DNA from: Haematobia irritans
Taxonomy: Eukaryota; Arthropoda; Insecta; Diptera; Muscidae
Reading direction: 5' to 3'
Length of the DNA stretch: 64,000 nucleotides
NCBI RefSeq assembly: GCF_050003625.1
Contig: NC_134397.1
Span: 225,742,537-225,806,536 of the forward strand
This document shows, in pieces, positions 1,761 through 56,745 of this stretch (position 1 is the stretch's first letter; every line of letters begins with the position of its first letter). A program made the translations under genes and the position numbers. Under the pieces are notes generated by a model. That model saw nothing but the letters and a program-made list of their open reading frames with translations, searched no databases and was not told where the DNA came from.

Positions 1761-3489
1761 ACAAGTATATACAGCAGTAAGTTCGGCCGGGCCGAATCTT
1801 AAATACCCACCACCATGAACCGAATATTAGGGTTTCCTTTGAAATGTCAGGAGGGATTGAGGACTTGAGGACACTTCCCGAAGATAAATTTAAGGATTTC
1901 ACCTATGAGGACTATATCAGATTCTGGATTTATAAGAACCATTTTTGTTCGAGTTTTAGAGGAATCGTTAACATCTCTTGTAAGTGTGCAAGAAAATTAT
2001 TAAATAACGTCTTGATTTAAAATCTTAAATCTGTAGAAGTAAAATCTGGAAATTTTACATTGAGTTTCAAGCAATTTTCATGATCAGTGCGCCTTCTACA
2101 CCCTCAAGAAGTGAAGTCGGTCTATATGGAGGCATTACCAAATGGACCGATAAAAACTTAATCCGATACACGTTTTTGTGAGCCTAAAATACCAGAATAT
2201 TTACAATTTCAGGCAAATCAGATAAAAACTACGGTTTCTAGAAACCCAAGGAGTTAAATCGGGAGATCGTTCTTATGGGGGCTATACTAAAATATGGACC
2301 GATACTCACCGTTTTCGGCACACCTCTTTATGACCCGAAAATACCTCTAGATTTCCAATTTCAGGCAAATAGGATAAAAACTTCGGATTCTAGAAGCTCA
2401 AGAAATAAAATCGGGAAATCGGTCTATATGGGGGCTATACCAAAATATGGACCGATACTCACCATTTTCGGCACACCTCTTTATGGTTTTAAAATACCTC
2501 TAGATTTCCAATTTTAGACAAATTGGATAAAAACTACGGTTTCTATAAGCTCAAGACCCCAAATCGGGACGTCTTTTTATATGGGGACCATACCAAAACA
2601 AGGACCGATACTAACAATTTTTGGCACACATATTTGTGGTCCTACAATACCTCTAGATTTCCAATTTCAGGTAAATTGAATAAAAATTGCGGTTTCTATA
2701 AGCCCAAGAAGTAAAATCGGGAGATGGGTCTATATGGGGGCTATACCAAAATATGTACCGATACTCACAATTTTTGGCACACGTATTTGTGGTCCTACAG
2801 TACCTCTAGATTTCCAATTTCAGGTAAATTGAATAAAAACTGCGGTTTCTATAAGCCCAAGAAATAAAATCGGGAGATGGGTCTATATGGGGGCTGTACC
2901 AAAATATGGACCGATACTCACAATATTTGGCACACGTATTTGTGGTCCTACAGTACCTCTAGATTTCCAATTTCAGGTAAATTGAATAAAAACTGCGGTT
3001 TCTATAAGCCCAAGAAGTAAAATCGGGAGATCGGTCTATATGGGGGCTATATCAAACCATGGACCTATACTCACCATTTTTGGCACACCTCTTTATGGTC
3101 ATAAAATACCTCTAGATTTCAAATTTCAGGCAAATTGGATAAAAACTACGATTTCTATAAGCCCAAGACCCCAAATCGGGAGGTCGGTTTATATGGGGAC
3201 TATATCAAAACCTGGACCGATATAGCCCATCTTCGAACTTGACCTGCCTGCAGACAAAAGACGAGTTTGTGCAAAATTTCAGCACGATTGCTTCATTATT
3301 GAAGACTGTAGCGTGATTACAACAGACAGACAGACAGACAGACGGACATCGTTATATCGTCTTAGAATTTCTCCCTGATCAAGAATATATATACTTTATA
3401 TAGTCGGAAATCGATATTTCGATGTGTTACAAACGGAATGACAAACTTATTATACCCCAGTCACCATTCTATGGTGGTGGGTATAAAAA
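1761..3489 (+). mobile_element. Family A long tandem-unit element, copy 1
   Basis: The head is acaagtatatac, then the palindrome TTCGGCC-G-GGCCGAA at 1782-1796, then ATACCCACCACCAT at 1803-1816. A ~450-bp leader is followed by about seven units of ~152 bp, with repeated gatcggtctatatggggg and ctctagatttccaattt starting near 2259, 2411, 2563, 2717, 2870, 3022 and 3174. The tail has gcgtgattacaacagacaga, a CAGA microsatellite, a ccctgatcaag core and a TA-rich stretch. It ends with ATGGTGGTGGGTAT at 3471-3484, the exact complement of the head motif. Short open frames inside are by-products of the repeat. The (GTCY)n-core-(TA)n tail resembles dipteran mini-me/Helentron-associated elements; that assignment is inference. 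Confidence 0.8.
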
Positions 3490-3526: not shown

Positions 3527-4880
3527 ACAAGTATATACGGCCGTAAGATCGGCCAGGCTGAAGCTTATGTACCCTCCACCATGGATTGCGTAGAAACTTC
3601 TACGAAAGACTGTCATCCACAATCGAATTACTTGGGTTGTGGTATCTTAAAACTTCTTAACATCGTTTTCTAAATTGTGAGTTAGTCCATACGTGGTAAA
3701 TATTAGACCAAAAAGGTATGTATAGGTAAGTCTACAAATAATTACGAATCGACATGGACTTTTGCACGGTACGTAGAGAGTCAGAATTGAAATATGGGGG
3801 TCGCTTATATGGGGGCTATATAGAATTATGAACTTGATATGGACCAATTTTTGTGTGATTGGAATCGATTTATCTGAGGGCTATATATAACTATAGACCG
3901 ATATAGACCTAGTTAGGCATGGTTGTTAACGGCCATATACTAGCACAATGTACCAAATTCCAACTGACTCGGATGAAATTTTCTCCTCCAAGAGGATCCA
4001 AAACCAAATCTCGGGATCGGTTTATATGGGGGCTATATATGATTATGGACTGATATGGACCACTTTTGGCATGGTTGTTAAATACCATATACTACCACCA
4101 CGTACCAAATTTCAGCCAGATAGGATGAATTATGCTTCTCCATAAGGCACCGGAGGTCAAATCTGGGGATCAGTTTATATGGGAGCTATATATAATTATG
4201 GACTGATATGAACCAATTCCTGCATGGTTGTTGGATACCATATACTAACATCACGTACCACATTTCAACCGAATCGGATGAATTTTGCTCTTCCAAGGGC
4301 TCCGGAGGTCAAATCTGGGGATCGGTTTATATGGGGGCTATATATAATTATTGACCGATGTGGACCAAATTTTGCATGGGTGTTTGAGGCCATATACTAA
4401 CACCACGGACCAAATTTCAACTGAATCAGATGAATTTTGGTCTTCCAAGAGGCTCCGGTGGTCAAATCTGGTGATCGGTTTATATGGGGGATATATATAA
4501 TTATGGACCGATGTGGACCAATTTTTGCATGATCGGATGAACTTTCAGCCGGATCGTATGAAATTTGCTTCTCTTATAGCAATCGCAAACCAAATTTGGG
4601 GGTCCGTTTATATGGGACTATACGTAAAAGTGGACCGATATGGCCCATTTGCAATACCATCCTACCTACATCAATAACAACTACTTGTGCCAAGTTCCAT
4701 GTCGATAGCTTGTTTCGTTCGGAAGTTAGCGTGATTTCAACAGACGGACGGACGGATCGTCTCAGAATTTCACCACGACCCAGAATATATATACTTTATG
4801 GGGTCTTAGAGCAATATTTCGATGTGTTACAAACGGAATGACAAAGTTAATATACCCCCATCCTATGGTGAAGGGTATAA
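3527..4880 (+). mobile_element. Family B long tandem-unit element, copy 1
   Basis: It starts 37 bp after family A copy 1, at the end of an A-run. The head is homologous to family A (acaagtatatacgg, a diverged hairpin, then the accctccaccatgg motif). Internal units of ~150 bp carry ggatcggtttatatggggg, gaccgatgtggacca and catatactaacaccac. The tail has gttagcgtgatttcaacaga, GACG repeats, cagaatatatatacttta and a degenerate closing motif (tatggtgaagggtat at 4864-4878). It is non-coding. Confidence 0.8.
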
Positions 4881-11449: not shown

Positions 11450-12686
11450 AAGGGTGATACGGTGAAATCGTTTATTTAAAAAATCATATTAAATTTCTTT
11501 TTCAAGTTCAATTAGTATAAAGTTCAGGAAAAATATTCAGTTAGGCTTTCGCTTTTCCAAATCGGAATTGCCGGGCCTCACGCTTGACACCTGCCATCAG
11601 ATTTTGTACAGCCACCTTGTCCACCTTCTTCGCCGCAGAAAGCCAGTTTGCCTTGAACTGCTGCTCGTCCTTAGCAGTTTTTTTGGTCTTCTTTAGGTTC
11701 CGCTTGACAATAGCCCAGTATTTCTCAATTGGGCGGAGCTGTGGCGAGTTGGGAGGGTTCTTGTCCTTGGGAACCGCCTGCACGTTGTTGGCGGCGTACC
11801 ACTCCATGGCCTTTTTACCGTAATAGCAAGATGCCAAATCCGGCCAAAACAGTACGGAACAACCGTGTTTCTTCAGGGAAGGCAGCAGACGTTTATTCAA
11901 ACACTCTTCCACGTAAATTTCTTGGTTGACAGTCCCGGAAGCTATGAAAATGCTGCTTTTCAAGCCACAGGTACAGATGGCTTGCCAAACCAGATATTTC
12001 TTTGCGAACTTTGACAGTTTTATGTGCTTGGAAATATCTGCTACCTTTCCCCCTTCCTTTCGCCTTATAAAACCCCTGTCCCGGAAGCTGCTTTGACGTA
12101 GGTTTCGTCGTCCATTACCACACAGTCAAACTTCGTCAGCATCGTCGTGTACAGCCTCCGGGATCGCGCTTTGGCCGACGTATTTTGTTTACCATCGCGA
12201 TTTGGAGTCACTACCTTCTTGTAAGTCGATAGTCCGGCTCGTTTTTTGGCTCGATGCACGGTTGTAGACGATACACCCAGCGGAGAGAGAGGTTAGGGGT
12301 TCGCTTGAAACTACCGGAAACTCTCTTTGTCGTCTCAGCGGCTTCCGGTTTTCGATTTCCCCCCGATCCAGACTTCCTGGCTGTCGACAAACGTTCCCCA
12401 AACACTTTAATTACATTTGTAACGGTTGATTTGGCAACTTTTAGTGATTTTGCCAGCTTTGCGTGCGAGTAGCTCGGATTTTCGCGATGCGCGAGCAAAA
12501 TTTTGATACGCTGCTCTTCTTGCTTGGACGGCATTTTGACAACTGAAGAGTGAATTCCAAGATTAAAATAAAAGCAACATTCTACACACACACACCTTCA
12601 AAATGAGGGGTGTTCAGTTTTTTAAATGCAAAATTGAAAGAAATACGTCAAGTTTATATTGACCAAATTTTGACCGTATCACCCTT
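11450..12686 (-). mobile_element. DD37E-type Tc1/mariner element, copy 2 (nearly full length)
   Basis: A 1.24-kb element with TA duplications at 11448-11449 and 12687-12688. The inverted ends share aagggtgatacggt (left end, plus strand; right end, minus strand). It encodes a broken transposase on the minus strand and lies hard against the head of family C copy 1 (12689), so its TA target was next to that element. Confidence 0.92.
11541..12534 (-). pseudogene. Tc1/mariner DD37E transposase, frameshifted
   Basis: This would be the cut-and-paste transposase: DNA-binding N-terminus, then a DDE catalytic domain. It starts MPSKQEEQ at 12534. The first catalytic Asp is in VVMDDETYV (near 12100), the second in LFWPDLAS (near 11850), and the Glu in RPIEKYW (near 11735). 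I count 37 residues between the second Asp and the Glu, which is the DD37E signature. Relative to copies 1 and 3 it has a 16-base deletion near 12280 (loss of cttatttgcggcatct) and another frame break near 12080. The C-terminal block (11541-11963, 140 residues, ending GKAKA) is intact, with a stop at 11541. It is not functional as it stands. Confidence 0.9.
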
Positions 12687-13236: not shown

Positions 13237-14272
13237 GAAAATGTAAAATTAAAATTAAATAGTCTCATTCAACAAAGCTATTTTTGAGCTTCATCCCTGT
13301 GTTCCAAGGATATGCTCGTAAATCATTGAATTAAAAAGACAAAAGGTGCTCACACTTATATCCATTGCTTTTCAAAGTTTACATTTACATTTGTACTTGT
13401 ATATATTACCAAACTAAGGTAAATGGATGCTAGTGACAATAAAACACAACACAATTGAGAAAGTGCATCAAATTGTCCAACGGCTCTATTATGCCATAAG
13501 CTCATACACCTAAAAAGGTATTGTATTTGGGAAGGCAATAATCATAAAATGTGGTCTAATTTGTTCTTTAAAATATTTAAAAAACAGATACATCTCAAGC
13601 AAATTAAAGACGTGATCATTGTTCACAACATGAGGTCTAACTCTAACACCTCTAGTATATTTAAGTGAATAAATTTATTTTGTTCACACTGACCATATAT
13701 TGATGTAGGGTATGATGAAAAAATAAAACTTCTGTTGCCAACACTAAGTGTGTAGAATAAAATTTATTACAATTGCCATATGTTTTTGCAAAGTCACACA
13801 CAGTTTGCCACCATCTCTAAAACAGATGTGAGCAAAGAACACAAAAAACTATGGTATAATTTCAACATTTTTCATTTTCCATTTGTAAAAGTAGTTCATA
13901 GTGGATAAATATTTTTTATGTCTGGACTTGTGAGCAATTTCAACAATGGGACACAAAATACATATATACTCACAAACACACACTTCTCATTATATAGCGG
14001 TTTAATGAAATTAATTGTTTGCTGTATTGTTTTACTAATCTCTTCACTGAAAAGCTAGAGCATTTTATTCACAAAAAAAACCAAAACAACCTTGTCTACC
14101 ATGACACTTCAAATGTAAGAGTACTTGAGGGTGAGTGATTGATGTTCAACGACTATGTCTACAGTAGGTATTCGATTTAAGATTTATTTAAAAGGGTAGA
14201 TGGTTTAAAGTCAATTTAATTTATTTATTCCACTTTAATGGGTCTTGGAATTACATATTTTAACATTTTTGG
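13237..14272. other. No recognised feature
   Basis: AT-rich sequence without clear repeats or coding potential. A short CA-rich stretch (acacacttctc) is near 13980. Confidence 0.4.
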
Positions 14273-16632
14273 AAACAAATTGACAAAATTTTCTATAGAA
14301 ACATTTTGAAAAAATTTTTCAATAGAAAGACAATTTCTAAAACAATTTTCAATTGAAATAAAATTTTGACTAATTTTCTATAGAAATAAAATTTTGTATC
14401 AAAATAAAATTTGGACAAACTTTTCTATAGAAATAAAAATTTTTGATAAATTTTTTTAAAGAAATAAAATTTTGACAAAATTTTCTATAAAAAGAGATTT
14501 TGACAAACTTCTCTATAGAAATAAAATTTTGACAAAATTTTCTATAGAAATAAAATTTTGACAAAATCTTTTATAAAAAATTAAAAAAAAATCTATAAAA
14601 TTTTGACTAAATTTTATATAAAATTTTGACTAAATTTTCTATAGAAAAAAATTTTGACAAAAGTTTTCTATAGAAATAAAATGTTGGACAGAAATTTTCT
14701 ATTGAAATAAAGTTTTGTTGAAATTTCCTATAGAACACAAATTTGAAAAAAAAAATCTATATAATTTAAATTTTGACAAAAAATTTCTAAAAAATAAAAT
14801 TTTGACAAAACTTTCTATAGAAATAAAGTTTAGACAAAACTTTATACAAAAGTAAAATTTTAACAAAATTTTCTATATGAATAAAATTTTGACAGAATTT
14901 TCTATAGAATTGAAATTTTGAGAAAATTGTCTATAGAAATAGAATTTGGAAATATTCTTTAGAAGTAAAATTTTGACAATTTTTCTATAGAAATAAAACT
15001 TTGACACAATTTTCTATAGAAATAAAATTTTGACAAAATGTGCCATAGAAGTAAAATCTTGACAAAATTTTCTATAGAAATAAAATTTTGACAACATTTT
15101 CTATAGAAATAAAATTTTGACAAAATTTTCTATAGAAATAAAATTTTGACAAATTTTTCTATAGAAATAAATTTTAGACTAAATTTTATATAGAAATAAA
15201 ATTTGTTAAAATTTTCTATGGAAATAGAATTTTGACAACATTTTCTATAGAAATTAAATTTTATAGAAATAAAATGTTGGACACAAATTTTCTATTGAAA
15301 TAAAGTTTTGTTGAAATTTCCTATAGAACACAAATTTGAAAAAAAAAATTCTATAGAAATTAAATTTTGACAAAAATTTCTAAAAAATAAAATTTTGACA
15401 AAACTTTCTATAGAAATAAAGTTTAGACAAAACTTTATACAAAAGTAAAATTTTAACAAAATTTTCTATATGAATAAAATTTTGACAAAATTTTCTATAG
15501 AATTGAAATTTTGAGAAAATTTTCTATAGAAATAGAATTTGGAAATTTTCTTTAGAAGTAAAATTTTGACAACATTTTCTATAGAAATAAAATTTTGACA
15601 AAATTTTCTATAGAAATAAAATTTTTACAACATTTTCTATAGAAATAAAATTTTGACAAAATGTGCCTTTGAAGTAAAATCTTGACAAAATTTTCTATAG
15701 AAATAAAATTTTGACAACATTTTCTATAGAAATAAAATTTTGACAAAATTTTCTATAGAAATAAAATGTTGACAATTTTTTTTTATAGAAGTAAAATTTT
15801 GACAAATATTTCTATAGAAATAAAATTTTGAAAAATTTTTCTATAGAAATAAATTTTAGACTGAATTTTATATAGAAATAAAATTTGTTAAAATTGTCTA
15901 TGGAAATAGAATTTTGACAACATTTTCTATAGAAATTAAATTCTATAGAAATAAAATGTTGGACAAAAATTTTCTATTGAAATAAAGTTTTGTTGAAATT
16001 TCCTATAGAACACAAATTTGAAAAAAAAATTCTATATAATTTAAATTTTGACAAAAATTTCTAAAAAATAAAATTTTGACAAAACTTTCTATAGAAATAA
16101 AGTTTAGACACAACTTTATACAAAAGTAAAATTTTAACAAAATTTTCTATATGTATAAAATTTTGAGAAAATTTTCTATAGAAATAAAATTTGGAAATTT
16201 TCTTTAGAAGTAAAATTGTGACATAAAATAGAAAAAAAATTTTGACAAAATGTACCATAGAAGTAAAATCTTGACAAAATTTTCTATAGAAATAAAATTT
16301 TGAACATTTTTTTTATAGAAGTAAAATTTTGACAAATATTTCTATAGAAGTGAAATTTTGAAAAAAATTTCTATAGAAATAAAATTTGTTAAAATTGTCT
16401 ATGGAAGTACAATTTTGACAACATTTTCTATAGAAATTAAATTGTGACAAAATTTTCTAAAGAAATCAAATTGTGACAAAATTTTCTATATACAAAATTT
16501 TCTATAGAAATAAAATTTTGTTAAAATTTGTTATAGAAATAAAATTTTGTTAAAATTGTTTATGGAAATAAAATATTGAAAATAATTTCTATAGAAATAA
16601 AATTTTGACAAAATTTTTATATAAAAATAAAG
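14273..16632 (+). repeat. 29-bp minisatellite array M1
   Basis: About 80 degenerate units of ~29 bp. The unit core is ttttctatagaaataaaa followed by ttttgacaaaa. It contains the perfect 12-bp palindrome TTTCTATAGAAA. A marked variant block (aaaatgttggac, tctattgaaataaagtt, ttgttgaaatttcctatag) recurs near 14683, 15271 and 15954, showing a higher-order repeat of roughly 0.6-0.7 kb. Open frames here are artefacts of the repeat. Confidence 0.95.
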
Positions 16633-16730
16633 TCTTGCAGTCTATAGGACTTTGCCCAAATAAATTTGACAACCGTTCTTTTCCTCTATTGCTTAAGCTA
16701 CACTTGTAGTTTAGTCGATGCATGGTTTTA
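16633..16730 (+). mobile_element. Family D fragment (right-arm outer part)
   Basis: Matches the outer part of the D right arm: cttgcagtctatagg, gcccaaataaatttgacaa, cttaagctacacttgtagt, catggtttta. It begins inside the 3' strand of hammerhead stem I and lacks the catalytic core. It joins array M1 directly. Confidence 0.8.
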
Positions 16731-16965
16731 ACCCTCTAATGCCCAATCCCTCCTTTATGCGGGCTTCATTTAATAAGGAAGCTTTTAGTAAAACGCACTT
16801 TAAGACGACAAAAATGGGTAAAATAAAAAGAATATTTAGTTAAGACTGTTCAAGAGGCTTTGCTGCATATATTGAATTTTACCGTATAAATTTTTCTTAT
16901 TTAGTTTTCTTGCTTTTGTGTCGTTAACATTGAAAATTTAATCAGGTGGCAAAAAAATTGGGGCA

Positions 16966-17766
16966 TTAAAATTTTGACAAAAATACAAAAAGTAAAATAT
17001 TAGCAAAATTTTCTATATGAATAAAATTTTGACAAAATTTCCTATAGAAATGAAATTTTGACAAAATTTTATATTGAAATGAAATTTTGACAAATTTTCT
17101 ATAGAAATAAAATGTGGAAATTTTCTTAGAAGTAAAATTTTGACACGATTTTCTATAGAAATACAATTGTGATAAAATTTAGAATAAAAATAAAATTTCG
17201 ACAAAATTTTCTATAGAAATACAATTTTGATAAAATTTTCTATAGAAATAAAATTTTTACAAAATTTTCTATAAAAATTTTGCAAAATTTTCTATAAAAT
17301 TTTGACTAAATTTTCTATAAAATTTTGAATAAATTTTCTATAAGATTTTTCCTAAATTTTCTATAAAATTTTTCCTAAATTTTCTATAAAATTTTGCTAA
17401 ATTTTCTATAAAATTTTGCCTAAATTTTCTATAAAATTTTGCTTAAATTTTCTATAGAAATAAAATTATGACAAAACATTTCAATTGAAATAAAATGTCG
17501 AACAAAAATTTTCTATTGAAATAAAGATTTGTTGAAAGTTTCTATAGAAAACAAATTTGAAAAAAAATTCTATGGAAATAAAGTTTCGACCAAATTGTCT
17601 ATAGAAATAATATTTTGTCAAAATTTTCTATAGAAATAAAATTTGGCAAAAATTTCTATAGAAATAAAATTTTGACAAAATTTTCTATGGAAATAACATT
17701 TTGACAAAATTTTCAATAGAATTAAAATTTTGACAACATTTTCTATAGAAATAAAATTTTTTCATT
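16966..17766 (+). repeat. 29-bp minisatellite array M2
   Basis: Same unit and orientation as M1. It includes a run of shortened units (ctataaaattttgc repeats at about 17270-17450) and one copy of the variant block seen in M1 (about 17490). It runs up to the D1 palindrome. Confidence 0.93.
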
Positions 17767-17921
17767 CGTTTTGTTTTGTTATTGTTGGTTTTGTTCTTTA
17801 GGCATTGTTGTTGTTTTTTTATTTCAGCTTAAAATCATGCATCGACTAAAATACAAGTGTAGCTTAACCAACAGAGGAAAAGAATGTTTGTCAAATTTAT
17901 TTGGGCAAAGCCCTATAGACT

Positions 17922-17986
17922 GCAAGATGGTTGGATGGACGCACGTTTCGGAATTACCACATTCCTCATCAGCTTCCTCTACTTGC
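17922..17986 (-). ncRNA. Hammerhead ribozyme motif, D1 left arm
   Basis: Minus-strand order: GCAAG, bulge, inner stem I GGAAG, core CTGATGA, stem II GGAAT-GTGGTA-ATTCC, GAA, stem III ACG-TG-CGT, then C completing the GTC cleavage triplet, CATCC, bulge, CTTGC. All conserved core bases are present. Inner stem I has one mismatch (GGAAG against CATCC). Predicted self-cleavage is between 17938 and 17937 on the minus strand. Confidence 0.85.
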
Positions 17987-18127: not shown

Positions 18128-18192
18128 GCAAGTAGAGGATGCTGATGAGGAATGTGGTAATTCCGAAACGTGCGTCCATCCAACCATCTTGC
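18128..18192 (+). ncRNA. Hammerhead ribozyme motif, D1 right arm (perfect)
   Basis: Outer stem I is GCAAG 18128-18132 with CTTGC 18188-18192. Inner stem I is GGATG 18137-18141 with CATCC 18177-18181. The core CTGATGA is at 18142-18148. Stem II is GGAAT 18149-18153 with ATTCC 18160-18164 around the loop GTGGTA. GAA is at 18165-18167. Stem III is ACG 18168-18170 with CGT 18173-18175. The cleavage triplet GTC ends at 18176. Every pair is Watson-Crick. This is a type I hammerhead with the minimal stem III typical of Penelope-like elements and schistosome SINE-like repeats. Confidence 0.92.
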
Positions 18193-18290
18193 AGTCATTC
18201 AAACAAACATTCTTTTCCTCTGTTGGTTAAGCTACACTTGTAGTTTAGTCAATGCATGGTTTAAGCTGAAATAAAGAACAACAAAATAAA

Positions 18291-18708
18291 AATTAAATTT
18301 TGACAAAACTAAAGAAAATACAATTTTAACAAAATTTTCTATAGAAATTTTGGCAAAATTTTCTATAGAAATAAAATTTGGAAATTTTCTTTAGAAGTAA
18401 AATTTTGATAAAATTTTCTATAGAAATAAAACTTTGACAAAATTTTCTATGGAAATACAATTGCGATAAAATTTTGAATAAAAATAAAATTTGGACAAAA
18501 TTTTCTATAAAAATACAATTGTGATAAAATTTTGAATAAAAATAAAATTTCGACAAAATTTTCTATAAAAATACAATTTTGTTAAAATTTTCTATAGAAA
18601 TACAATTTTGATAATATTTTCTATAGAAATAAAATTTTGACTAAATTTTCTATGGAAATCAAATTGTGAAAAAATTTTCTATTGAAATATAATTTTGACA
18701 AACTTTTC
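18291..18708 (+). repeat. 29-bp minisatellite array M3
   Basis: Continues M2 in the same orientation after the D1 palindrome. It is interrupted by MITE E1 and resumes for ~85 bp at 19351-19435. Confidence 0.92.
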
Positions 18709-18710
18709 TA

Positions 18711-19348
18711 CACTCAAAAAAAGTTTACTTGGATCCAAAGATTTTGACCTTCCCTTAAGGATTTTGGTATTGATTCCGAGCCAAAAATGCGGCTTCTTTA
18801 AAATAAAGAAAATTTTTAGCGACATGTCTGTCTTTAAATCTAGGACCAATAAAATTAAAATTAGGATACAGATATCATTTATCAAATTATAGTCCTCTTT
18901 TCGCGGTTTATTAAAAAAGGTACTCACGTACAAACAATGCCAGTTTAAATATCCAAATTATAACGGATATTTCAAAGTAAAAAATGCTCTCTTATTAAAA
19001 AAAAAACTTTAAACCAAAGACGCTAAATCCGCAAAATAAGTCTTAGTCTATATTTGAAGCATTTTTCTCTTAAATCTAAAGTTTCAATAAAGTTTCAAAA
19101 ATGTGTTTCTTTACATTAAGGAAAATTGACCTTAGTTTAAAGACATGCGACTTTAACGGAGGGACGCAAATTTACAAAATTTGTGTCCTAAATTTAATGA
19201 AAACAATTTTTGAAGCAAAGATTATAAACTTTATTTTAATTAAAATTTCATTATTTTAAAGAAAATTGTTTTTAGTATTGTGTAAATTTCGCATACTAAA
19301 ATTTAGGTTGCGTAATCTTTAATATCACGTAAATATTTTTTGTCAATG
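18711..19348 (+). mobile_element. MITE family E, copy 1
   Basis: Starts CACTCAAAAAAAG and ends TTTTTTGTCAATG, with TA at 18709-18710 and 19349-19350. The flanks rejoin to a normal M-array unit (ttttc-TA-cagaagtaaaa), which confirms the boundaries. The interior matches the inverted copy at 61086-61650 and the fragment at 608-682. No transposase. Confidence 0.8.
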
Positions 19349-20702: not shown

Positions 20703-23182
20703 TCAAAACTACTGTGGTACAGGGTATTATAAGTTAGTGCACATATTTGCAACACCCAGAAGGAGACGAGGTAGACGCATGGTGTCTTTGGCAAAAATGG
20801 TCAGGGTGGGCTCCTGAGTCGATATAGCCATGTCCGTCTGTCCGTGAACACATTCTTGTAATCAAAGTCTAGGTCGCAGTTTTAGTCCAATCGACTTCAA
20901 ATTTTGCACAAATATGTGTTTTGGCTCAGAATAGAACCCTATTGATTTTGGTTGAAATCGGTTCAGATTTAGATATAGCTCCCATATATATCTTTCGCCC
21001 GATATGGACTAATACGATCCCAGAAGCCAGAGTTTTACCCTAATTTGGTTGAAATTTTGCATTGGGAGTAGAATTAGCATTGTAGATATGCGTGCCAAAT
21101 TTGGTTTAAATCGATTCAGATTTAGATATATCTCCCATATATATGTTTTTCTGATTTCGACAAAAATTTTCACAATTTCCCATATTTATAACCTGCGCCA
21201 CACTGTGGAACAGGGTATTATAAGTTAGTGCATATATTTGTAACACCCTGAAGGAGACGAGATAGACAAATGGTGTCTTTGGCAATAATGCTCAGGGTGG
21301 GTCCCTGAGTCGATATAACCATGTCCGTCCGTCCGTCCGTCTGTCTGTGAACACATTTTTGTGAGCAAATTTAAGTCCAATCGCCTTCAAATTTGGCACA
21401 TGTTCCTAATTTGGGTTAGAATAGAACCCTATTGATTTTGGAAGAAATCGGTTCAGATTTAGATATAGCTCCCATATATATCTTTCGCCCGATATGCACT
21501 AATATGGACCCAGAAGCCAGATTTTTGGCTGAATTTGGTTGAAATTTTGCACTAGGAGTACAATTAGTAGTATAGTAAAGTGTGCAAAATTTGAAATCGG
21601 TTCAGATTTAGATATAGCTCCCATATATATCTTTCGCACGATATGAACTAATATGGACCTAAAAGCCAGAGTTTTGGCCAAATTTGGTTGAAATTTTGCA
21701 CAAGGAGTAGATTTAGTATTGTAGCAATGCGTGCCAAATTTGGTTGAAATCGGTTCAGATTTAGATATAGCTCCCATATATATCTTTCGCCCGATATGGA
21801 CTAATATGGTCCTAGAAGTCAGAGTTTTGGCCCAATTTGTTTGAAATTTTACACTAGGAGTACAATTAGTAGTGCACTTAAGTGTGCAAAATTTGATTGA
21901 AATCGGTTCAGATTTAGAAATAGCTCCCATATATATCTTTCGCCCGATATGGACTAATATGGTTCTAATAGCCAGAGTTTTGGCCCAATTTGGTTGAAAT
22001 GTTGCACAGGGAGTAGATTTACCATTGTAGCTATGCGTGCCAAATTTGATTGAAATGTATATATATCTTCCATATATAGCTTTCACCCGATTTACACTCA
22101 TATGACCACAGAGGCCAATTTTTAACTCTGATTTAGTTGAAATTTTGCACAGGGAGTAGAATTAGCATTGTAGCTATGCGTGACAAATTTGGTTGAAATC
22201 TGTTCAGATGTAGATATAGCTCCCACACTGAAAAAACAGGAACCCACCAGGAAGAAAACTTTTGATTAATTTTAGAAAATTTTGAATAGTTTTAGAAATT
22301 TTTAACTAAACAGTATTACAAGCGCTGGCGTCACGCCGATATCACAAAAAAGTAAATATTTTTCGACAAATTCAAGAAAATTTATTAGACATATATGATT
22401 TTTTTCACTTTTTAAAGAAAATTGTGTAGGAAAAAATTGGAGTTCAAAATTGCAGGAATGTCTTTAGTGACATACGAAGTTCATGATGGACGCTGTTGTA
22501 ATAAAATTTACAAATTTGAAGAAATAATGAACTATTTTTTGAGAAGTACGAATTTAGTAAAACTTTTTACTTCATTTGTGTATAATTTTTTCCCGTCTTT
22601 TTGTTCATTTAACTAACGTACGCAAAAAATTATTAGAGTAAATGAAACTTTCTCCAAATATAATAATTTCATGAACTAAAATATAGTTAAATTGACTTTA
22701 GTGAAATAGTGAGTTCACTTTTTTTTGAGTGCATATATATGTTTTTCTGATTTCGACAAAAAAGGTCAAAATACCAACATTTTCCTTGTAAAATCGCCAC
22801 TTCTTAGTCGAAAAGTTGTAAAACTGACTCTAATTTTCCTAAGCTTCTAATACATATATATCGAGCGATAAATCATAAATAAACTTTTGCGAAGTTTCCT
22901 TAAAATTGCTTCAGATTTAAATATTTTCCCATATTATTTTACTAACATTGTGTTCCACCCTAGTACATTAGCCGACTTAAATTTTGAGTCTATAGATTTT
23001 GTAGAAGTCTATCAAATTCTGTCCAGATCGAGTGATATTTAAATGTATGTATTTGGGACAAACCTTTATATAGCCCCCAACAGATTTGACGGATGTGATA
23101 TGGTATCGAAAATTTAGATCTACAAAGTGGTGCAGGGTATAATATAGTCGGCCCCGCCCGAATTTTGACTTTCCTTACTTGT
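20703..23182 (-). mobile_element. Family C element, copy 2 (two tails, several units)
   Basis: On the minus strand the head is at the right end (acaagtaaggaaagtc from 23182, then a cggccccgcccgaa region, then ataccctgcaccac). Inside are five to six ~155-bp units (ggttcagatttagatatagc, cccatatatatctttcgccc, gaaattttgcac). Two tail copies occur, near 20703-20860 and 21190-21360, each with the gtggaacagggtattataa closing motif and gagtcgatata-ccatgtccgtc text with GTCY repeats. A MITE (22226-22731) is inserted in it. The 200-residue frame at 21499-22101 is the repeat read through and is not a gene. Confidence 0.75.
22226..22731 (+). mobile_element. MITE family F
   Basis: Begins CACTGAAAAAACAGG and ends TTTTTTTTGAGTG, with CA at 22224-22225 and 22732-22733. 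Removing it restores the family C phrase agctcc-CA-tatatatg found at other units, so the insertion is precise. The interior is non-coding (64-residue frame at 22422-22616 unrecognised). Confidence 0.75.
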
Positions 23183-28005: not shown

Positions 28006-30726
28006 GAGACACTGACAAGATGAATCTGAGAGCATATAAACGAGAACTGAGATGGTCTCAACAAAACTCTTGGGATGATTACTGTAGCAATATTGAGAAT
28101 ACGTCAGAGGCTTCCAGAGTAGGGGAGGTACTAGCATCCACTAACACCGCTCCAGGTTTCATTAAAACATCGGAGGGAAATTGGACAACGTCCAGTGAGG
28201 AGACGCTGGAGGTACTATTGGACACACATTTTCCTGGAAATCAGACGGTTGAACCATGTACTGGCGGTGCCACAGTTGCTCAGCGGTCGTTTCCTGTCGA
28301 GGAAATTGTATCGGAAACTAGAATAAGATGGGCGCTAAATAGCTTTGGACCATTCAAATTCCCCGGATCTGATGGAATTACTCCGGCGGAGTTACAGTCA
28401 GTGGCTGAAAGAATTATCCCCTGGTTGACGGTGATATATAAACGATGTGTAAACTTAGCATATATTCCAGAAAAGTGGAGGGAAACAAAAGTCGTCTTCA
28501 TACCTAAAGCAGGAAAAGCCTCTCACTCGAGTGCGAAGGATTTCCGACCAATCAGGTTATCCTCATTCCTACTTAAGACCCTGGAGAGGATGATAGACAT
28601 GTATCTTAGAACTAGCGTGGATTCAAGTTTGCTCCCGAAACGACAGCATGCAAACTCGAAGGGCAGGTCTACTGAGACCGCATTGCATGAACTAGTCAGC
28701 TTTATTGAAAGCTCACTATCTCTCAAAGAATACACAATCGTGGCGTTTCTAGACATCGAAGGGGCGTTCAATAATGTCCATCCGAGCTCGATATTAAATG
28801 GACTGACAACTCTGAATGTTGATCCAGGTATACTTAGGCTGTTAGACGAACTTCTAAGGAAGAGACGCATTTCAGCCACACTAGGACAAGCAAACATACA
28901 AAGGTATGTGAACAGTGGCACTCCTCAAAGAGGAGTTCTATCACCTCTTCTTTGGAATGTTGCTATAAACAACCTTCTGGTTTCCCTAGAAAAAGAAAGG
29001 ATAAAAGTGGTGGCATACGCAGATGATGTGGCGCTAGCAGTCAGGGGAAAATTCCCATCCACAATCAGAGATATTATACAGAGAGCTCTCCGGATGACTG
29101 AGAAATGGGCGAAAGATAATGGTGTAAATCCAGCAAAGAAAGAACTAGTCATGTACTGCAAAGATCGCAAAACTCCCACGGTTAGGCCAATTTCCTTAGG
29201 GGGTACTGAAATTCCGTTTGGTGAATGTGCAAAATACCTTGGCGTTATTTTGGACAGGAAGCTGAATTTTAGGCTTAATATTGAAGAGAGGGCGAGAAAA
29301 GGCACGGTAGCTTTGTACTCGTGCAAAAAGGGGAAAAAGTGGCGACTAAAACCAAAAATTGTGCATTGGCTATACACGGCAGTAGTTAGACCTATAATGC
29401 TATATGGTGTTGTAGTCTGGTGGCCGGCACTTCAGAAACCGACTTGTTTAGATAAAGTTCAGCGTATGGCGAGCTTATGTATCTCAGGCGCATTTAGTAA
29501 GACAGGAACAGACTCCCTTAATGTCATGCTACATCTATTGCCTTTAGACATTTTGGCCAAACAGTCAGCTGCAACATCGGCTGTGCGGTTGCGCGAGCTA
29601 TCGCTGTGGTCGGAAAAAATGTACGGTCATAGTTCGGTCCTCAAAGTAATGCCAGATGTGCCTAACGTAGTGGATTACACCCTGGCAAAACCACTTTTCG
29701 ACAAAAAGTTTGAAACTCTAATTCCCAACAGTGAGGCGTGGTGTACACAGACCCCAGGGAATAAAAGATATATAGATTTCTATACTGATGGCTCCAAATT
29801 GAATGGACAAGTGGGGTTCGGAGTATATTCTAACGATCTGAAAATTCGAATAGCAAAAAGATTACCTAATCACTGTAGTGTTTTTCAGACTGAAATATTG
29901 GCAATAAGAGAGGTGGTGAATTGACTGAGAAGTAATGTTCCAACAAATATTTGCATTAATATATACTCAGACAGTCAACCTGCAATAAAATCCTTGGACT
30001 CTGTGTTCCTTAACTCGAAAACGGCCATAGACTGCCGCAAATCTCTCAACGAGATGGCTGAGCAGTACAATATTCACCTAATATGGGTACCTGGCCATAG
30101 GAACATACCGGGGAACTGCGAAGCAGATGTGTTAGCAAGGCTAGGAACTACCTTACATATTCCAGGGGAACTAGAATCTGTTGGTATGCCTCTGGCCACC
30201 TGCAAGCTCTTACTGCGTGAGAAGGCTGTTGTTGTAGCGACACCAAGCACATATGGCCCCATTTAAACTTAAACCGCACACTAGATATGCTAGTGTTCTC
30301 AATGCGTCAGATAGCACTCCTGATATCTGCTATAACGGGTCGCTGCCTGATAGGCGAATTTGCAAAAACTATAGGTGCGAAGTATAATGACTATTGTATG
30401 AGCTGTCACGATGTGGAGGAAAAGGAATCAATTAAACACCTCTTGTGTGAGTGTCCTGCTTTTTGTGTAAGGCGTAAGCGAATTTTAGGAGCATATAGCT
30501 TTAGATTACTGGATGACCTGGAAAACGTTAACTTAAGCAGTTTGTTAATGTTTTTGGAGCAATCTGGTTGGTTCCACAAAAGTAAATAATAGAGAAGGTT
30601 CAGTGGTTAAGACTAGAAGTGTCCATATGTAGTAGGTACTTTTAGTTAAATGTGGTATCAAAATGGACTGAATAGTCTAAGTGAGCCTGAAATTTAATCG
30701 GACTGCCACTTTAACCTAACCTAACC
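28006..30726 (+). mobile_element. 5'-truncated non-LTR retrotransposon (LOA/I-like, RT plus RNase H)
   Basis: A 2.7-kb insertion bounded by a perfect 12-bp duplication. It lacks ORF1 and the endonuclease, as expected of 5' truncation during target-primed reverse transcription. The 3' UTR (30590-30726) contains tggactgaatagtctaagtg and ctgccact and ends in repeated taacc units, not poly(A). The same 3' wording is found at the ends of the tRNA-derived SINEs in this window. Confidence 0.93.
28020..30589 (+). pseudogene. LINE ORF2 remnant: reverse transcriptase, RNase H, C-terminal CCHC-like segment
   Basis: The polyprotein would copy the element's RNA into DNA at the target site. The first frame (28020-29924, 634 residues) has RT motifs: VVFIPKAGK, DFRPIRLSS, DIEGAF (Asp 245), GTPQRGVLSPLLWN and YADD (residues 333-336). 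RNase H starts with FYTDGS (587-592) and TEILAI (Glu 625). A TGA at 29922-29924 interrupts it where a Trp codon is likely; the same frame continues with YSDSQPA and WVPGHRNIPGNCEAD, completing the RNase H set. A frameshift near 30260 separates the last part (30287-30589), which holds CMSC...KHLLCECP. RT followed by RNase H, and DIEGAFNNV, favour the LOA/I group. Upstream domains are missing, so 28020 is not the true start. Confidence 0.93.
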
Positions 30727-31350: not shown

Positions 31351-31906
31351 AACATTTCCTCAACATTTTATTTCTATAGCAAATTTTGTCAAAATTTTAT
31401 TTTTATAGAAAATTTTGTTAAAATTGTATTTCTATAGAAAATTTTGTTAAAATTTTATTTCTATAGAAAATTTTGTAAAAATTTTATTTCTATAAAAAAT
31501 TTTGTCAAAATTTTATTTCTATAGAAAATTTTGTCAAAATTTTATTTCTATAGAAAATTTTGTCAACATTTTATTTCTATAGAAAATGTTGTCAAATATT
31601 TATTTCTATAGAAAATTTTGTCAAAATTTTATTTCTATAGAAAATGTTGTCAAAATTTTATTTCTATAAAAAATTTTGTCAAACTTTTATTTCTATAGAA
31701 AATTTTGTCAAAATTTTATTTCTATAAAAAATTTTGTCAAAATTTTATTTCTATAGAAAATTTTGTCAAAATTTTATTTCTATAGAAAATGTTGTCAAAA
31801 TTTTATTTCTATAGAAAATGTTGTCAAAATTTTATTTCTATAAATTTTTTTTTCAAAATTTTATTTCTATAGAATAATTTGTTAAAATTTTATCAAAATT
31901 TTATTT
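31351..31906 (-). repeat. 29-bp minisatellite array M4 (left part)
   Basis: Highly regular units (attttgtcaaaattttattt then ctatagaaa), the reverse complement of M1 and among the least diverged arrays here. It runs into palindrome D2. Confidence 0.95.
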
Positions 31907-32096
31907 CGTTTTGTTTTGTTATTGTTGGTTGTGTTCTTTAATCATTGTTGTTGTTTTTGATTTCAGCTTAAAACCATGCATTGACTAAACTACAAGTGTA
32001 GCTTAACCAACAGAGGAAAAGAATGTTTGTCAAATTTATTTGGGCAAAGCCCTATAGACTGCATGTCAAACTTATTTGTGCAAAGCCCTATAGACT

Positions 32097-32161
32097 GCAA
32101 GATGGTTGGATGGACGCACGTTTCGGAATTACCACATTCCTCATCAGCATTCTCTACTTGC
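32097..32161 (-). ncRNA. Hammerhead ribozyme motif, D2 left arm
   Basis: Same 65-nt plan as 18128-18192, on the minus strand. Core CTGATGA, stem II GGAAT/ATTCC, GAA, stem III ACG-TG-CGT and triplet GTC are intact. Inner stem I is GAATG against CATCC with one A-C mismatch; the outer stem GCAAG/CTTGC is intact. Confidence 0.83.
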
Positions 32162-32242
32162 AGCAAAACTATGTACCAATTATCAGAATAAATTCAGGCA
32201 GTTCAATAAAGCCAATTCTGATAATTGGTTGATAGTTTTGCT

Positions 32243-32307
32243 GCAAGTAGAGGATGCTGATGAGGAATGTGGTAAGTCCGAAACGTGCGTCCATCCAACC
32301 ATCTTGC
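32243..32307 (+). ncRNA. Hammerhead ribozyme motif, D2 right arm
   Basis: Core CTGATGA, GAAA, stem III and GTC are intact, and both parts of stem I pair fully (GGATG/CATCC, GCAAG/CTTGC). Stem II has one mismatch (GGAAT against AGTCC). Probably weaker than the D1 right-arm copy. Confidence 0.83.
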
Positions 32308-32422
32308 AGTCTATAGGGCTTTGCCCAAATAAGTTTGACAAACACTCTTTTCCTCTGTGGGTTAAGCTACACTTGTAGTTTAGTCAATGCATGGTTTTAA
32401 GCTGAAATCAAAAACAACAACA

Positions 32423-33060
32423 AAATTTTATTTCTATAGAAAATTTTGTTAAAATTTTTGAATGCAATTTCTATAGAAAATTTTGTTAAAATTTTTGAAT
32501 AAAATTTCTATAGAAAATTTGGTCAATATTTTACTTCAATAGAAAATTTTGTCAAAATTTTATTTCTATAGAAAATTTTGTCAGTATTTTATTTCTATAG
32601 AAATTTTTTTAAAATTTTATTTGTATAGAAAATTTTGTCAAAATTTTATTTGTGTAGAAAATTTCAACAACATTTTATTTGTATACACAAGTTTGTCAAA
32701 ATTTTATTTGCATAGAAAATTTTGTCAACATTTTATTGATATAGAAAATGTTGTAAAAATTTTAATTCTATAGCAAATTTTGTCAACATTTTATTCTTAC
32801 AGAAAATTTTGTCAACATTTTATTTCTATAGAATAATTCGTTAAATGTTTATTTCTATATAATATTTTGTTAAATTTTTATTTCTATAGAAAATTTTATC
32901 AAAATGTTATTTCTATAGAAAATTTTGTCAACATTTTAGTTCTATAGGAAATTTTGTGAACATTTTATTTCCATAGAAAATTTTGTAAAATTTTTTTCTT
33001 TAGAACATTTTGTCCAATTTTTTTCTACAGAAAACTTTGTCAAAATTTTCTATAGAAATT
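32423..33060 (-). repeat. 29-bp minisatellite array M4 (right part)
   Basis: Continues M4 in the same orientation, more degenerate toward its right end (about 33050). Confidence 0.92.
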
Positions 33061-37000: not shown

Positions 37001-37009
37001 ATTTATTAA

Positions 37010-37610
37010 TAAAATTTTGACATAACTTTTTATAGAAATAAAATTTTTATAAAATTTTGTATAGAAATAAAGTTTTGTCAAAATTTTGTATAGAAATAAA
37101 ATTTAGTCAAAATTTTCTATAAATATTAAATTTTGAGAAAAATTTGTATAGAAATAAAACAATGACAAAATATTGTAATGAATAAAATTTTGAGAAAATG
37201 ATGAATATAATGAATATAATTTTGTATAGAAATAAAATTTTGAGAAAATTTTCAGAAAAAAAATCGAGATAATTTTCTAAGAAATAAAATTTTGACATAA
37301 TTTTTTATAGAAATAACAAAATTTTCTACAGATATGAAAATTTGAGAAAATTTCCATTTTAAATTTTGAGAAAATGTTGTATAGAAATAAAATTTTGACG
37401 AAATTTTGTATAGAAATAAAAATTAGAGAAACTTTTCTAATGAAGTAAAATTTTGGGAAAATGTTCTATAGAATTAATTTTTTGAGACTAATTTCTAAGA
37501 AATAATTTCGACAAAATTTTCTAACAAATAAAATATTGCCATAATTTTTTATAGAAATAAAATTTTGTCAAAATTTTCTATAGATATAAAAATTTCATAG
37601 AAATTACATT
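37010..37610 (+). repeat. 29-bp minisatellite array M5 (left part)
   Basis: Same unit as M1, with its own variant block (gaaaatgttgtatagaaat, ttagagaaa, gttctatagaattaatttt) near 37366-37500 that recurs near 38158 and 38578. Confidence 0.9.
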
Positions 37611-39041: not shown

Positions 39042-39089
39042 TGTTTTGTTATTGTTGGTTTTTGTTCTATAATCATTGTTGTTGTTTTT
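39042..39089 (+). mobile_element. Family D fragment (outermost left end)
   Basis: ttgttttgttattgttggtt and aatcattgttgttgttttt match the first ~50 bp of D1 and D2, after which family B copy 2 begins. No hammerhead remains. Confidence 0.75.
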
Positions 39090-52950: not shown

Positions 52951-53226
52951 CTGTTGTTTTTTGATTTCAGCTTAAAACCATGCATTGACTAAACTACAAG
53001 TGTAGCTTAACCAACAGAGGTAAATTTATTTGGGCAAAGCCCTACAGACTGCAAGATGGTTGGATGGACGCACGTTTCGGAATTACCACATTCCTCATCA
53101 GCATCCTCTACTTGCAGCAAAACTATCAACCAATTATCAGAATAAATTCAGGCAGTTCATTAAACCCAACAATGAACCACACTTGAACCTTCCGAAAAAG
53201 GGTTTTGCATTGATAGCCGGCTTACC
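52951..53226 (+). mobile_element. Family D, single left arm (D3)
   Basis: tttcagcttaaaaccatgca, ctacaagtgtagcttaacca, caaagccctacagactgc, then the hammerhead region, then caggcagttcattaaaccca and gaaccacacttgaacctt. It continues past the palindrome centre into gatagccggcttacc, text also found inverted at 56215-56240. No right arm and no flanking M array. The 110-residue frame from 53030 is not a known protein. Confidence 0.8.
53051..53115 (-). ncRNA. Hammerhead ribozyme motif, D3 (perfect)
   Basis: Minus-strand copy with all stems fully paired: GCAAG/CTTGC, GGATG/CATCC, GGAAT/ATTCC and ACG/CGT. It has CTGATGA, GAAA and GTC. As no opposing arm is present, a transcript of this strand could fold the ribozyme without a competing long hairpin. 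Confidence 0.9.
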
Positions 53227-54597: not shown

Positions 54598-55890
54598 TGA
54601 ATTTACAGAAAATTTCGTCAAAATTTTATATCTATAAAAAATTTTGTTACAATTTTATTTCTATAGACAATTTTGCCAAAATTTTAATTCTAGAGAAGAT
54701 TTCGCCAAAATTTTATTTCTATGGAAAATGTTGTGAAAATTTTATTTCTGTAGAAAATTTTGTCAAAATTTTATTTCTGTAGAAAATTTTGTCAAAATTT
54801 TATTACTATAGAAAGTTTTGTCTAAATTTATTTTCTATAGAAAATTTTGTCAACATTTTATCTCTGTAAAAAATTTGGTCAACAATTTTATTTCTATAAA
54901 AAATTTGGTCAAAATTCTATTTCTATAGAAAATTTTGTCAAAATTTTATCTCTATAAAAAATTTTGTCAAAATATTATTTCTATAGAAAATTTTCTCAAA
55001 ATTTTATTTCTATAGAAAATTTGTCAACATTTCATTTCGATAGAAAAATTTTATTCCTATAGGATATTTTGTCAAAATTTTATCTCTATAAAAAATTTTG
55101 TCAAAATATTATTTCTATAGAAAATTTTCTCAAAATTGTATTTCTATAGAAAATTTGTCAAAATTTTATTTCAATAGAAAATTTTCTCAACATTTTATTT
55201 CGATAGCAAGTTTTGTACAAAATTTATTTCTATAGAAAGTTTTGTCAAAATTTTAGTGCTATAGAAATTTTTTTCAAAATTTTAGTGCTATACAAAAATT
55301 TTATTTCTATAGTAAATTTTGTCAAAATTTTATTTCTATAGTAAATTTTGTTAAAATTGATTTCTATAACAAATTTTGTCAAAATTTTATTTCTGTAGAA
55401 AATTTTGCCAAAATTTTATTTCAATAGAAAATTTTGTCGAAATTTTATTTCTATAGAAACTTTTGTCAAAATGTTATTTCTATAGCAAATTTTGTCGAAA
55501 TGTTATTTCTATAGAAAATTTTGTCAAAATTTTATTTCTATAGAAAGTTTTGTCAAAATTTTAGTGCTATACCAAAATTGTATTTCGATAGAATATTTTG
55601 TCAAAATTTTATTTCTATATTAAATTTTGTCGACATTTGATTTCTATTGTAAATTTTGTTAAAATTTATTTCATTGAAAATTTTGTCAAAATTTTATCTC
55701 TATAAAAAATTTTGTCAAAATTTTATTTCTATAGTAAAATGTGTCAAATTTTTTTTTCTATAGAAAATTTTCTCAACATTTTAATTCTATAGAAAATTTT
55801 GTCAAAATTTGAAATTTTGCTAAAATTTTATTTCTGTAGAAAATTTTGCCAAAATTTTATTTCTATAAAAAATTTTGTCGAAATTTTATT
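54598..55890 (-). repeat. 29-bp minisatellite array M6 (left part)
   Basis: Same orientation as M4. About 44 degenerate units ending at palindrome D4. Confidence 0.93.
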
Positions 55891-55892
55891 TT

Positions 55893-56515
55893 ATTTGTTG
55901 TTTTGATCTCAGCTTTAAAACCATTGTGTTGACTAAACTACAGGAGTAGCTTAACTAACAGAGGAAAAGAACTAAATTTGACAAACATTCGTTTCCTCTG
56001 TTGGCTAAGCTACTCTTGTAGTTTAGTCAACACAATGGTTTTAAAGCTGAGAGCAAAACAACAAATATGATTGAAGTACAAACCCACAATGAAAAATAAA
56101 ACACAGATGAAGTAAGAGGAAGCCCGCTCAAAATAAACCCAGCCAACTGCACTCAAATTGATGATTTGATGGTGACAAAGGAAAAGAGAAATATTTGTAT
56201 GAATTTATTTCGCCATAAGCCGGCTATCATAAACCTTTTTTCGGAAGGTTCAAGTGTGGTTCACCATGGGTTTAGAGAACTGCCTGGATTTATTCTGATA
56301 ATTGGTTGATAGTTTTGCTGCAAGTAGAGGTTGCTGATGAGGAATGTGGTAATTCCGAAACGTGCGTCCATCCAACCATCTTGCAGTATATAGGGCTTTG
56401 CGCAAATAAATTTGCAAACATTCTTTTCCTCTGTTGGTTAAGCTACTCTTGTAGTTTAGTCAACACAATGGTTTTAAGGCTGAGATCAAAGCAACAAGTA
56501 TGATTGAAGTACCAA
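55893..56515. mobile_element. Family D palindrome D4 (subfamily, left arm shortened)
   Basis: 55893-56063 is a compact palindrome of the outer arm only (tagcttaactaacagagg against cctctgttggctaagcta). It is followed by internal sequence (56064-56225) and a long right arm with a hammerhead (56320-56384), ending at 56515. Both arms share changes absent from D1 and D2: cacaatggttttaa in place of tgcatggttttaa, and gctgagatcaa in place of gctgaaatcaa. The stretch caacaaatatgattgaagta occurs at 56060 and, as caacaagtatgattgaagta, at 56490. Confidence 0.8.
56320..56384 (+). ncRNA. Hammerhead ribozyme motif, D4
   Basis: Core CTGATGA, stem II GGAAT/ATTCC, GAAA, stem III and GTC are intact. Inner stem I is GGTTG against CATCC with one T-T mismatch; outer GCAAG/CTTGC is intact. 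Predicted cleavage is after 56368. Confidence 0.83.
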
Positions 56516-56529
56516 CCCACAATGAAAAA

Positions 56530-56745
56530 CAAAACATGAAATTTTCTTTCTATAGTAAATTTTATCGAAATTTTATTTCTATAGAAAATTTTGTCAAAAT
56601 TTTATTTCTGTAGAAAATTTTGCCAACATTTTATTTCTGTAGAAAATTTTGTCAAAATTTTATTTCTATAGAAAATTGTGCTAAAATTTTATTTCTATAG
56701 AAAATTTTGTTAAAATGTTATTTTTATATAAAATTTGAGTGACTC
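56530..56745 (-). repeat. 29-bp minisatellite array M6 (right part)
   Basis: Same orientation as the left part. Ends at the L boundary sequence (56746). Confidence 0.9.

What the first reader, a model, noticed from the sequence alone, without database searches (positions are those of the whole stretch)
18128..18192. Hammerhead ribozyme motif in a fly palindromic repeat, fully paired
Seen directly: 65 nt with every invariant hammerhead base (CTGATGA, GAAA, GTC triplet) and four stems, all Watson-Crick, in the right order for a type I hammerhead. The very short stem III (ACG-TG-CGT) is the form known from Penelope-like elements and schistosome SINE-like repeats. Six copies at five arms-worth of loci keep the core, while changes fall in stem I or stem II. 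A chance match of this quality is very unlikely.
Basis: partly seen in the sequence, partly recalled or inferred. Interest (0 to 1): 0.9.

Follow-up and report, generated by a model that had tools for sequence, protein, structure and literature searches.

The report
Hammerhead ribozyme in Penelope-like repeat
A repeated DNA element in an insect (likely fly) genome carries the complete sequence pattern of a hammerhead ribozyme, an RNA predicted to cut itself, and its insertion scars look like those of Penelope-type jumping genes, which likely copied it into AT-rich satellite DNA.

Summary
The 65 nt at 18128-18192 show an intact type I hammerhead core, a 3-bp stem III with a 2-nt loop, a 5-bp stem II and a two-part stem I. 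Six copies exist: all keep the core, two pair perfectly, four each have one broken pair, and none is compensatory. Rfam Hammerhead_1 is the best family at all six, but below its gathering score (14.6-16.1 versus 34 bits). Chance is very unlikely.

The "palindromic repeat" is better read as a non-autonomous Penelope-like insertion. Inserts A, B and D are 5'-truncated copies joined head to head, with a 38-40-nt AC-rich tail at one of the two outer ends and a 29-bp-satellite core repeated on both sides. Inverted pseudo-LTRs, the optional tail and AT-rich targets are published for Penelope-like elements. No Penelope gene was found in the stretch tested.

Energy folding does not favour the hammerhead fold, even in the short RNA, and buries it in the palindromes. 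Self-cleavage is untested. The rest of the genome could not be searched (genome search did not complete).

The parts
18128..18192 (+). Hammerhead motif A_R, fully paired; predicted cut between 18176 and 18177
   Evidence: RF00163 16.1 bits, below cut-off
17922..17986 (-). Hammerhead motif A_L, one stem I mismatch; predicted cut after 17938 (read on -)
   Evidence: RF00163 14.6 bits
32097..32161 (-). Hammerhead motif B_L, one stem I mismatch; predicted cut after 32113 (read on -)
   Evidence: RF00163 16.1 bits
32243..32307 (+). Hammerhead motif B_R, one stem II mismatch
   Evidence: RF00163 16.1 bits; missed by the descriptor
53051..53115 (-). Hammerhead motif C, fully paired, in a single-armed copy; predicted cut after 53067 (read on -)
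   Evidence: RF00163 16.1 bits
56320..56384 (+). Hammerhead motif D, one stem I mismatch; predicted cut after 56368
   Evidence: RF00163 16.0 bits
17765..18284 (.). Insert A: two 5'-truncated copies head to head (3' ends outward)
   Evidence: ends read by eye, a few bases uncertain
17765..17804 (-). AC-rich 3' tail (40 nt) on the left copy of insert A; absent from its right copy
31905..32422 (.). Insert B: two 5'-truncated copies head to head; left copy has an internal 36-nt duplication (32028-32099)
   Evidence: ends a few bases uncertain
31905..31944 (-). AC-rich 3' tail (40 nt) on the left copy of insert B; absent from its right copy
52952..53216 (-). Copy C: single arm, no tail, not in a satellite array
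55894..56536 (.). Insert D: inverted fragment, direct partial copy, and a copy with the ribozyme; the two direct copies are 433 nt apart and 91% identical over 129 nt
56499..56536 (+). AC-rich 3' tail (38 nt) at the right end of insert D; absent from the inverted left end
17748..17760 (-). Satellite core AAAATTTTATTTC (13/13) at the left edge of insert A; partner (11/13) just right of 18284
31895..31907 (+). Satellite core (13/13) at the left edge of insert B; partner 32422-32434 (13/13)
55880..55892 (+). Satellite core (11/13) at the left edge of insert D; partner 56538-56550 (11/13)
16633..16731 (+). Fragment E: 3' part of the repeat without the ribozyme

Best explanation
The window carries copies of a short non-coding retroelement, likely derived from the pseudo-LTR (pLTR) of a Penelope-like element, whose RNA contains a complete type I hammerhead motif predicted to cut itself after GUC (18176). 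Shown by sequence: the motif and its six copies; copies cut short at their 5' ends and joined head to head; an AC-rich tail at exactly one outer end of inserts A, B and D; a 29-bp-satellite core repeated on both sides of these three inserts. Inferred: a Penelope-type enzyme acting in trans nicked AT-rich satellite DNA on both strands, started copying the element RNA at one of two nearby 3' sites (with or without the tail) from each strand, and the two incomplete copies were joined, giving the palindrome. Inferred: the ribozyme trims tandem transcripts to unit length at a point about 110-130 nt before the tail-less 3' end. Predicted: a transcript running through a whole palindrome would form a long hairpin that hides the ribozyme, so RNAs holding only one arm are the likely cleaving form.
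For: Complete core at 6 of 6 copies and chance odds. RF00163 best family at 6 of 6 copies. The 65-nt motif varies less than the rest of the arm: 4 changes in 390 sites against 42 in 1015, Fisher p 0.002, and no gaps; without copy D 3 in 325 against 24 in 823, p 0.051. Tail at exactly one outer end in 3 of 3 two-ended inserts. Satellite core on both sides in 3 of 3; 4 of 5 loci lie in or beside 29-bp arrays that cover 12% of the window, p 0.001. Published for Penelope-like elements (passages seen): ORF-flanking pLTRs with an inverted pLTR, mostly head to head, a 31-bp optional tail, 8-10-bp duplications, a liking for simple AT-rich targets, pLTRs enough for mobilisation in trans (PMC3846280); cleavage and extension of both target strands, start of copying at two sites in an AC-rich region that bound the 30-40-bp tail, and a hammerhead in the element (PMC11167929).
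Against: No reverse transcriptase or GIY-YIG domain was found beside copy C (53200-54619, six frames); the other loci leave no room for one, and the parent element was not found. Energy folding of the 65-nt RNA prefers another structure (-18.6 against -11.9 kcal/mol for the hammerhead drawn with a 2-bp stem III) and gives stems I and III almost no probability; the program allows no 2-nt hairpin loop (recalled) and no tertiary contacts, so this is weak evidence. No covariation: all four helix changes break a pair. Rfam scores are below cut-off. The flanking repeats (about 11-17 bp by eye) are longer than the 8-10 bp published for the rotifer and sit in an array that repeats anyway; coincidence of the three phases has p 0.04. 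Copy C has neither tail nor satellite. Penelope hammerheads are described as minimal, without helix III (PMC6155905, PMC7761336), unlike this one.
Confidence: 0.7

Rival explanations
1. It is an animal (non-LTR) retrozyme: a tandem-repeat element with a classical type I hammerhead whose cut-out units circularise and are copied by some LINE or Penelope enzyme. The ribozyme would release and close 433-nt circles.
For: Stem III of 3 bp and a two-part stem I resemble classical more than minimal hammerheads; direct repeats 433 nt apart at D fall in the 150-450-bp range given for animal repeats (PMC7229834); the authors name Penelope-like elements as candidate movers.
Against: No locus in the window holds two ribozymes in direct tandem; at D the upstream copy lacks it. 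Head-to-head joins with one tail are a Penelope trait.
Confidence: 0.2
2. A fold-back or MITE-type DNA transposon whose inverted arms happen to carry a hammerhead-like sequence.
For: Long inverted arms, 124 nt at 97% in A, and flanking direct repeats.
Against: The joint differs at A, B and D; C is single-armed; outer ends differ by a tail. A terminal inverted repeat would have fixed, equal outer ends.
Confidence: 0.06
3. A fossil or chance motif: the sequence looks like a hammerhead but does not cut, and the repeat spreads without it.
For: Four of six copies have a broken pair, sub-threshold Rfam scores, unfavourable energy folding.
Against: All catalytic positions intact in 6 of 6 copies and two copies perfect; chance rate 0.0013 per window or less; motif less variable than its flanks.
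Confidence: 0.12
4. A long hairpin RNA gene (microRNA or small-interfering-RNA source), as the palindrome suggests.
For: Sub-threshold match to RF04209 (MIR7533), 110 bits against a cut-off of 230, over the palindrome; folding energy about -340 kcal/mol for insert A on either strand.
Against: The match reflects any long hairpin and is under half the family's cut-off; single-armed copy C cannot form it. It could still be a side effect of transcription.
Confidence: 0.04

Closest known systems
Penelope-like element pLTR with hammerhead (Poseidon of Anolis, PMC11167929; rotifer Penelope, PMC3846280; passages seen)
   Same: Head-to-head inverted and partial direct copies, optional 30-40-nt AC-rich tail at one end, AT-rich target, type I hammerhead upstream of the tail
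   Different: No Penelope gene found here; stem III of 3 bp and a longer two-part stem I rather than the minimal form; insertion at about one phase of a 29-bp satellite
Animal non-LTR retrozymes (PMC7229834; one part and passages seen)
   Same: Short non-coding AT-rich repeat with a type I hammerhead; 433-nt direct spacing at D
   Different: No tandem ribozyme units in the window; inverted joins and one-ended tail
SMalpha SINE-like element of Schistosoma (PMC8490949, PMC6155905; passages seen)
   Same: Type I hammerhead with very short stem III in a short retroelement
   Different: No tRNA gene in the window; different insertion architecture
Dipteran hammerheads of Drosophila pseudoobscura, Musca, Rhagoletis and Hermetia (PMC7936874; passages seen)
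   Same: Hammerheads in fly genomes
   Different: Those are described as type III; here stem III is the closed one, so type I

Membership tests
Type I hammerhead ribozyme | CUGANGA, GAAA and NUH in order around three helices | tested here: met
   6 of 6 copies
Type I hammerhead ribozyme | Open end at stem I, stems II and III closed | tested here: met
   Stem III ACG-TG-CGT and stem II closed, stem I open, in copies A_R and C
Type I hammerhead ribozyme | Covariance-model score at or above the Rfam gathering score | tested here: not met
   14.6-16.1 bits against 34, though best family at 6 of 6 copies
Type I hammerhead ribozyme | Compensatory changes in helices | tested here: not met
   Four changes, all break a pair; only six close copies
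Type I hammerhead ribozyme | Self-cleavage at the predicted site | not testable with these tools
   Needs an in-vitro assay
Penelope-like element | Inverted and partial direct pLTR copies, head to head | tested here: met
   Inserts A, B and D
Penelope-like element | Optional 30-40-nt tail at one end | tested here: met
   3 of 3 two-ended inserts have it at one end; C has none
Penelope-like element | Insertion in AT-rich DNA with target duplication | tested here: inconclusive
   Satellite core on both sides in 3 of 3, but the target is itself a repeat array
Penelope-like element | Reverse transcriptase plus GIY-YIG gene | tested here: not met
   None in 53200-54619, six frames; ten selected ORFs of the window gave one LINE-type RT and no GIY-YIG. 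So at most a non-autonomous derivative
Animal retrozyme | Tandem units each with a type I hammerhead | tested here: not met
   No direct tandem of two ribozyme-bearing units in the window
Animal retrozyme | Circular RNA | not testable with these tools
   No RNA data

The most novel reading that the evidence does not exclude
A retrozyme-grade type I hammerhead unit moved by Penelope machinery: the inserts record two-sided target-primed copying, one copy from each strand of a single break at a fixed place in a 29-bp satellite, one start with and one without the tail, which turns the ribozyme unit into a palindrome that silences its own ribozyme. This would be footprint evidence for the proposed, so far co-occurrence-based, link between retrozymes and Penelope-like elements.
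Probability: 0.35. Interest if true: 0.65.

Novelty: new variant of a known kind. Interest (0 to 1): 0.48.

Why it matters
The role of hammerheads in Penelope-like elements is called unknown in the review passages seen (PMC7761336), and the mover of animal retrozymes is only proposed (PMC7229834). Here one short element has both a fuller type I hammerhead and Penelope-type insertion scars, in six copies small enough to clone, so both questions become directly testable. The one-ended tail and the satellite phase also bear on how these elements insert.

Tried and rejected
Fold-back or MITE transposon: rejected because joints and ends differ between loci. Type III hammerhead as reported for flies: rejected because stem III is closed by a 2-nt loop and stem I is open. 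A Penelope gene beside copy C: none in six frames with X at stops. Homology of the regions upstream of C and D: none beyond nine shared bases; score 18 against a shuffled mean of 18.4. Homologues of the translated arm: 5 candidates, none at E 0.01. A tRNA-derived SINE head: ARAGORN found no tRNA; a B-box-like word at 56247 was not pursued. Exact 21-mer of the core in viral and in bacterial/archaeal contigs: 0 and 0, as expected for an insect repeat. Genome-wide copies: the genome search was asked nine times with the same request and never answered. Rfam microRNA matches to the palindrome were set aside as hairpin effects. Two key papers were not held (PMC4209133; PMC5785218). Paper searches on hammerheads with Diptera, fly fold-back, Musca, Penelope, retrozyme and satellite/insect terms listed no paper that I recognised, from titles and abstract starts, as describing this element; several lists were capped.

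Full report
What is there. The 65 nt at 18128-18192 (+) form a complete type I hammerhead motif: distal stem I GCAAG/CTTGC, internal loop TAGA/AACCAT, proximal stem I GGATG/CATCC, CTGATGA, stem II GGAAT/ATTCC around GTGGTA, GAAA, stem III ACG-TG-CGT, and GTC with the predicted cut after 18176. The 8 nt of stem and loop III can also pair with a second copy of themselves (by eye, two G-U pairs), as proposed for dimeric hammerheads with weak helix III (passage in PMC7761336).

Copies. BLAST of the arm against the window and the motif pattern show six ribozyme-bearing copies in four loci: insert A (two), insert B (two), copy C (one), insert D (one). Pieces without the ribozyme lie at 16633-16731, 55892-55971 and 55975-56103. 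All six keep the core; A_R and C are fully paired; A_L, B_L and D have one stem I non-pair each and B_R one stem II non-pair. None of the four changes is compensatory, so there is no covariation support.

Chance and models. The descriptor found 5 of the 6 copies and nothing else in the window; the rate in 100 Mb of matched random sequence was 0.0013 per window for stem I of 4 bp or more, and no match had stems I and II of 5 bp or more. Rfam Hammerhead_1 is the best family at all six copies in 101-nt pieces but scores 14.6-16.1 bits against a cut-off of 34. It is absent at gathering threshold in the whole window and was not listed in a 441-nt piece. The motif has 4 changes in 390 sites and no gaps, the rest of the arm 42 in 1015 (p 0.002); without copy D, whose differences may be of subfamily origin, 3 in 325 against 24 in 823 (p 0.051). 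Sites in related copies are not independent, so this is suggestive only.

Folding. Energy folding does not favour the hammerhead even in the 65-nt RNA: -11.9 kcal/mol for the hammerhead with a 2-bp stem III against -18.6 for the best structure, with stem II formed but stems I and III at 0.01 or less. The program does not draw a 2-nt hairpin loop and knows no tertiary contacts (recalled), so this neither proves nor excludes activity. For the whole of inserts A and B on both strands, every hammerhead helix has probability 0.00 because the arms pair with each other at about -340 to -365 kcal/mol. For copy C the distal helix and stem II form; for D stem II has 0.15.

What carries it. In A, B and D the 3' ends of the copies point outward and the 5' ends meet inside, each cut at a different place. 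The outer ends differ: one carries an AC-rich extension of 38-40 nt (A 17765-17804, B 31905-31944, D 56499-56536), the other stops at AACAACAA or nearly so. Insert D also has a direct partial copy 433 nt upstream, 91% identical over 129 nt. The 29-bp satellite has the same orientation on both sides of A, B and D, and its core AAAATTTTATTTC stands at both edges of each insert, 11-13 of 13 bases matching. The three junction phases fall within a few bases of each other; three random phases would do so with p 0.04. Arrays of this satellite cover 12% of the window, and four of the five loci lie in or beside them (p 0.001). Copy C lies outside and has no tail.

Comparison. For Penelope-like elements the passages seen describe direct and inverted pLTRs, mostly head to head, an optional tail at one of the inverted pLTRs, 8-10-bp duplications, a liking for AT-rich simple sequence and mobilisation of foreign sequence through pLTRs in trans (PMC3846280); and, for the Anolis element, cleavage and extension of both strands, copying started at two sites in an AC-rich region that account for the 30-40-bp tail, and a hammerhead that needs the protein in vitro (PMC11167929). 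Inserts A, B and D fit this pattern closely. The rotifer paper prefers self-priming on an antisense template for the head-to-head form; two-sided target priming is my inference from the Anolis data. What is missing is the Penelope gene: none beside copy C, and of ten selected ORFs in the window only one RT, of LINE type. I therefore call the element a likely non-autonomous, Penelope-type derivative, not a Penelope-like element proper.

How the ribozyme differs. Reviews describe Penelope hammerheads as minimal, without helix III and the tertiary contacts, and classical type I hammerheads as the mark of animal retrozymes (PMC6155905, PMC7761336, PMC7229834; passages and one part of the text seen). 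This motif has a 3-bp stem III and a two-part stem I with an internal loop opposite a 6-nt loop II, which leans to the classical form; tertiary contacts were not tested. Published fly examples seen are type III (PMC7936874), besides an Aedes aegypti motif in a figure legend (PMC3088659). The two main papers on Penelope hammerheads were not available, so a fly Penelope hammerhead of this same shape may already be in print.

Host. The LINE ORF at 28020-29921 finds named relatives mostly in insects, among them Drosophila, Anastrepha and Episyrphus (listed best 120 of 284), so 'fly' is likely but not shown.

Verdict. The hammerhead motif is real; the palindrome is an insertion product; the carrier is likely Penelope-type; self-cleavage is predicted but untested.

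Noticed in passing
14272-16631, 16967-17760, 18286-18710, 31360-31893, 32421-33049, 37008-37595, 38152-39043, 54607-55891, 56539-56736: 29-bp AT-rich satellite arrays (unit like CAAAATTTTATTTCTATAGAAAATTTTGT), about 12% of the window; some without the ribozyme repeat.
   Followed up: partly
2183-3222, 3864-4531, 21437-22225, 34926-35949, 39348-40596, 48895-50012: Several arrays with a unit of about 153 bp, some with long open frames (MGAIYNYGPMWTNF...), nature unknown.
   Followed up: no
28008-30263: LINE-type reverse transcriptase ORF followed by an RNase H piece.
   Followed up: partly
11544-12597 and 47902-48719: Two related broken transposase-like pairs of ORFs (helix-turn-helix and DDE_3, both below Pfam cut-off for the first pair; the second pair was judged by eye).
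   Followed up: no
37596-38151: A non-satellite stretch that interrupts a 29-bp array, with no other copy in the window.
   Followed up: no
18711-19310 and 61123-61598: Inverted copies of another repeat, 79% identical.
   Followed up: no
32028-32099: A 36-nt tandem duplication inside the left copy of insert B, just after the ribozyme.
   Followed up: no
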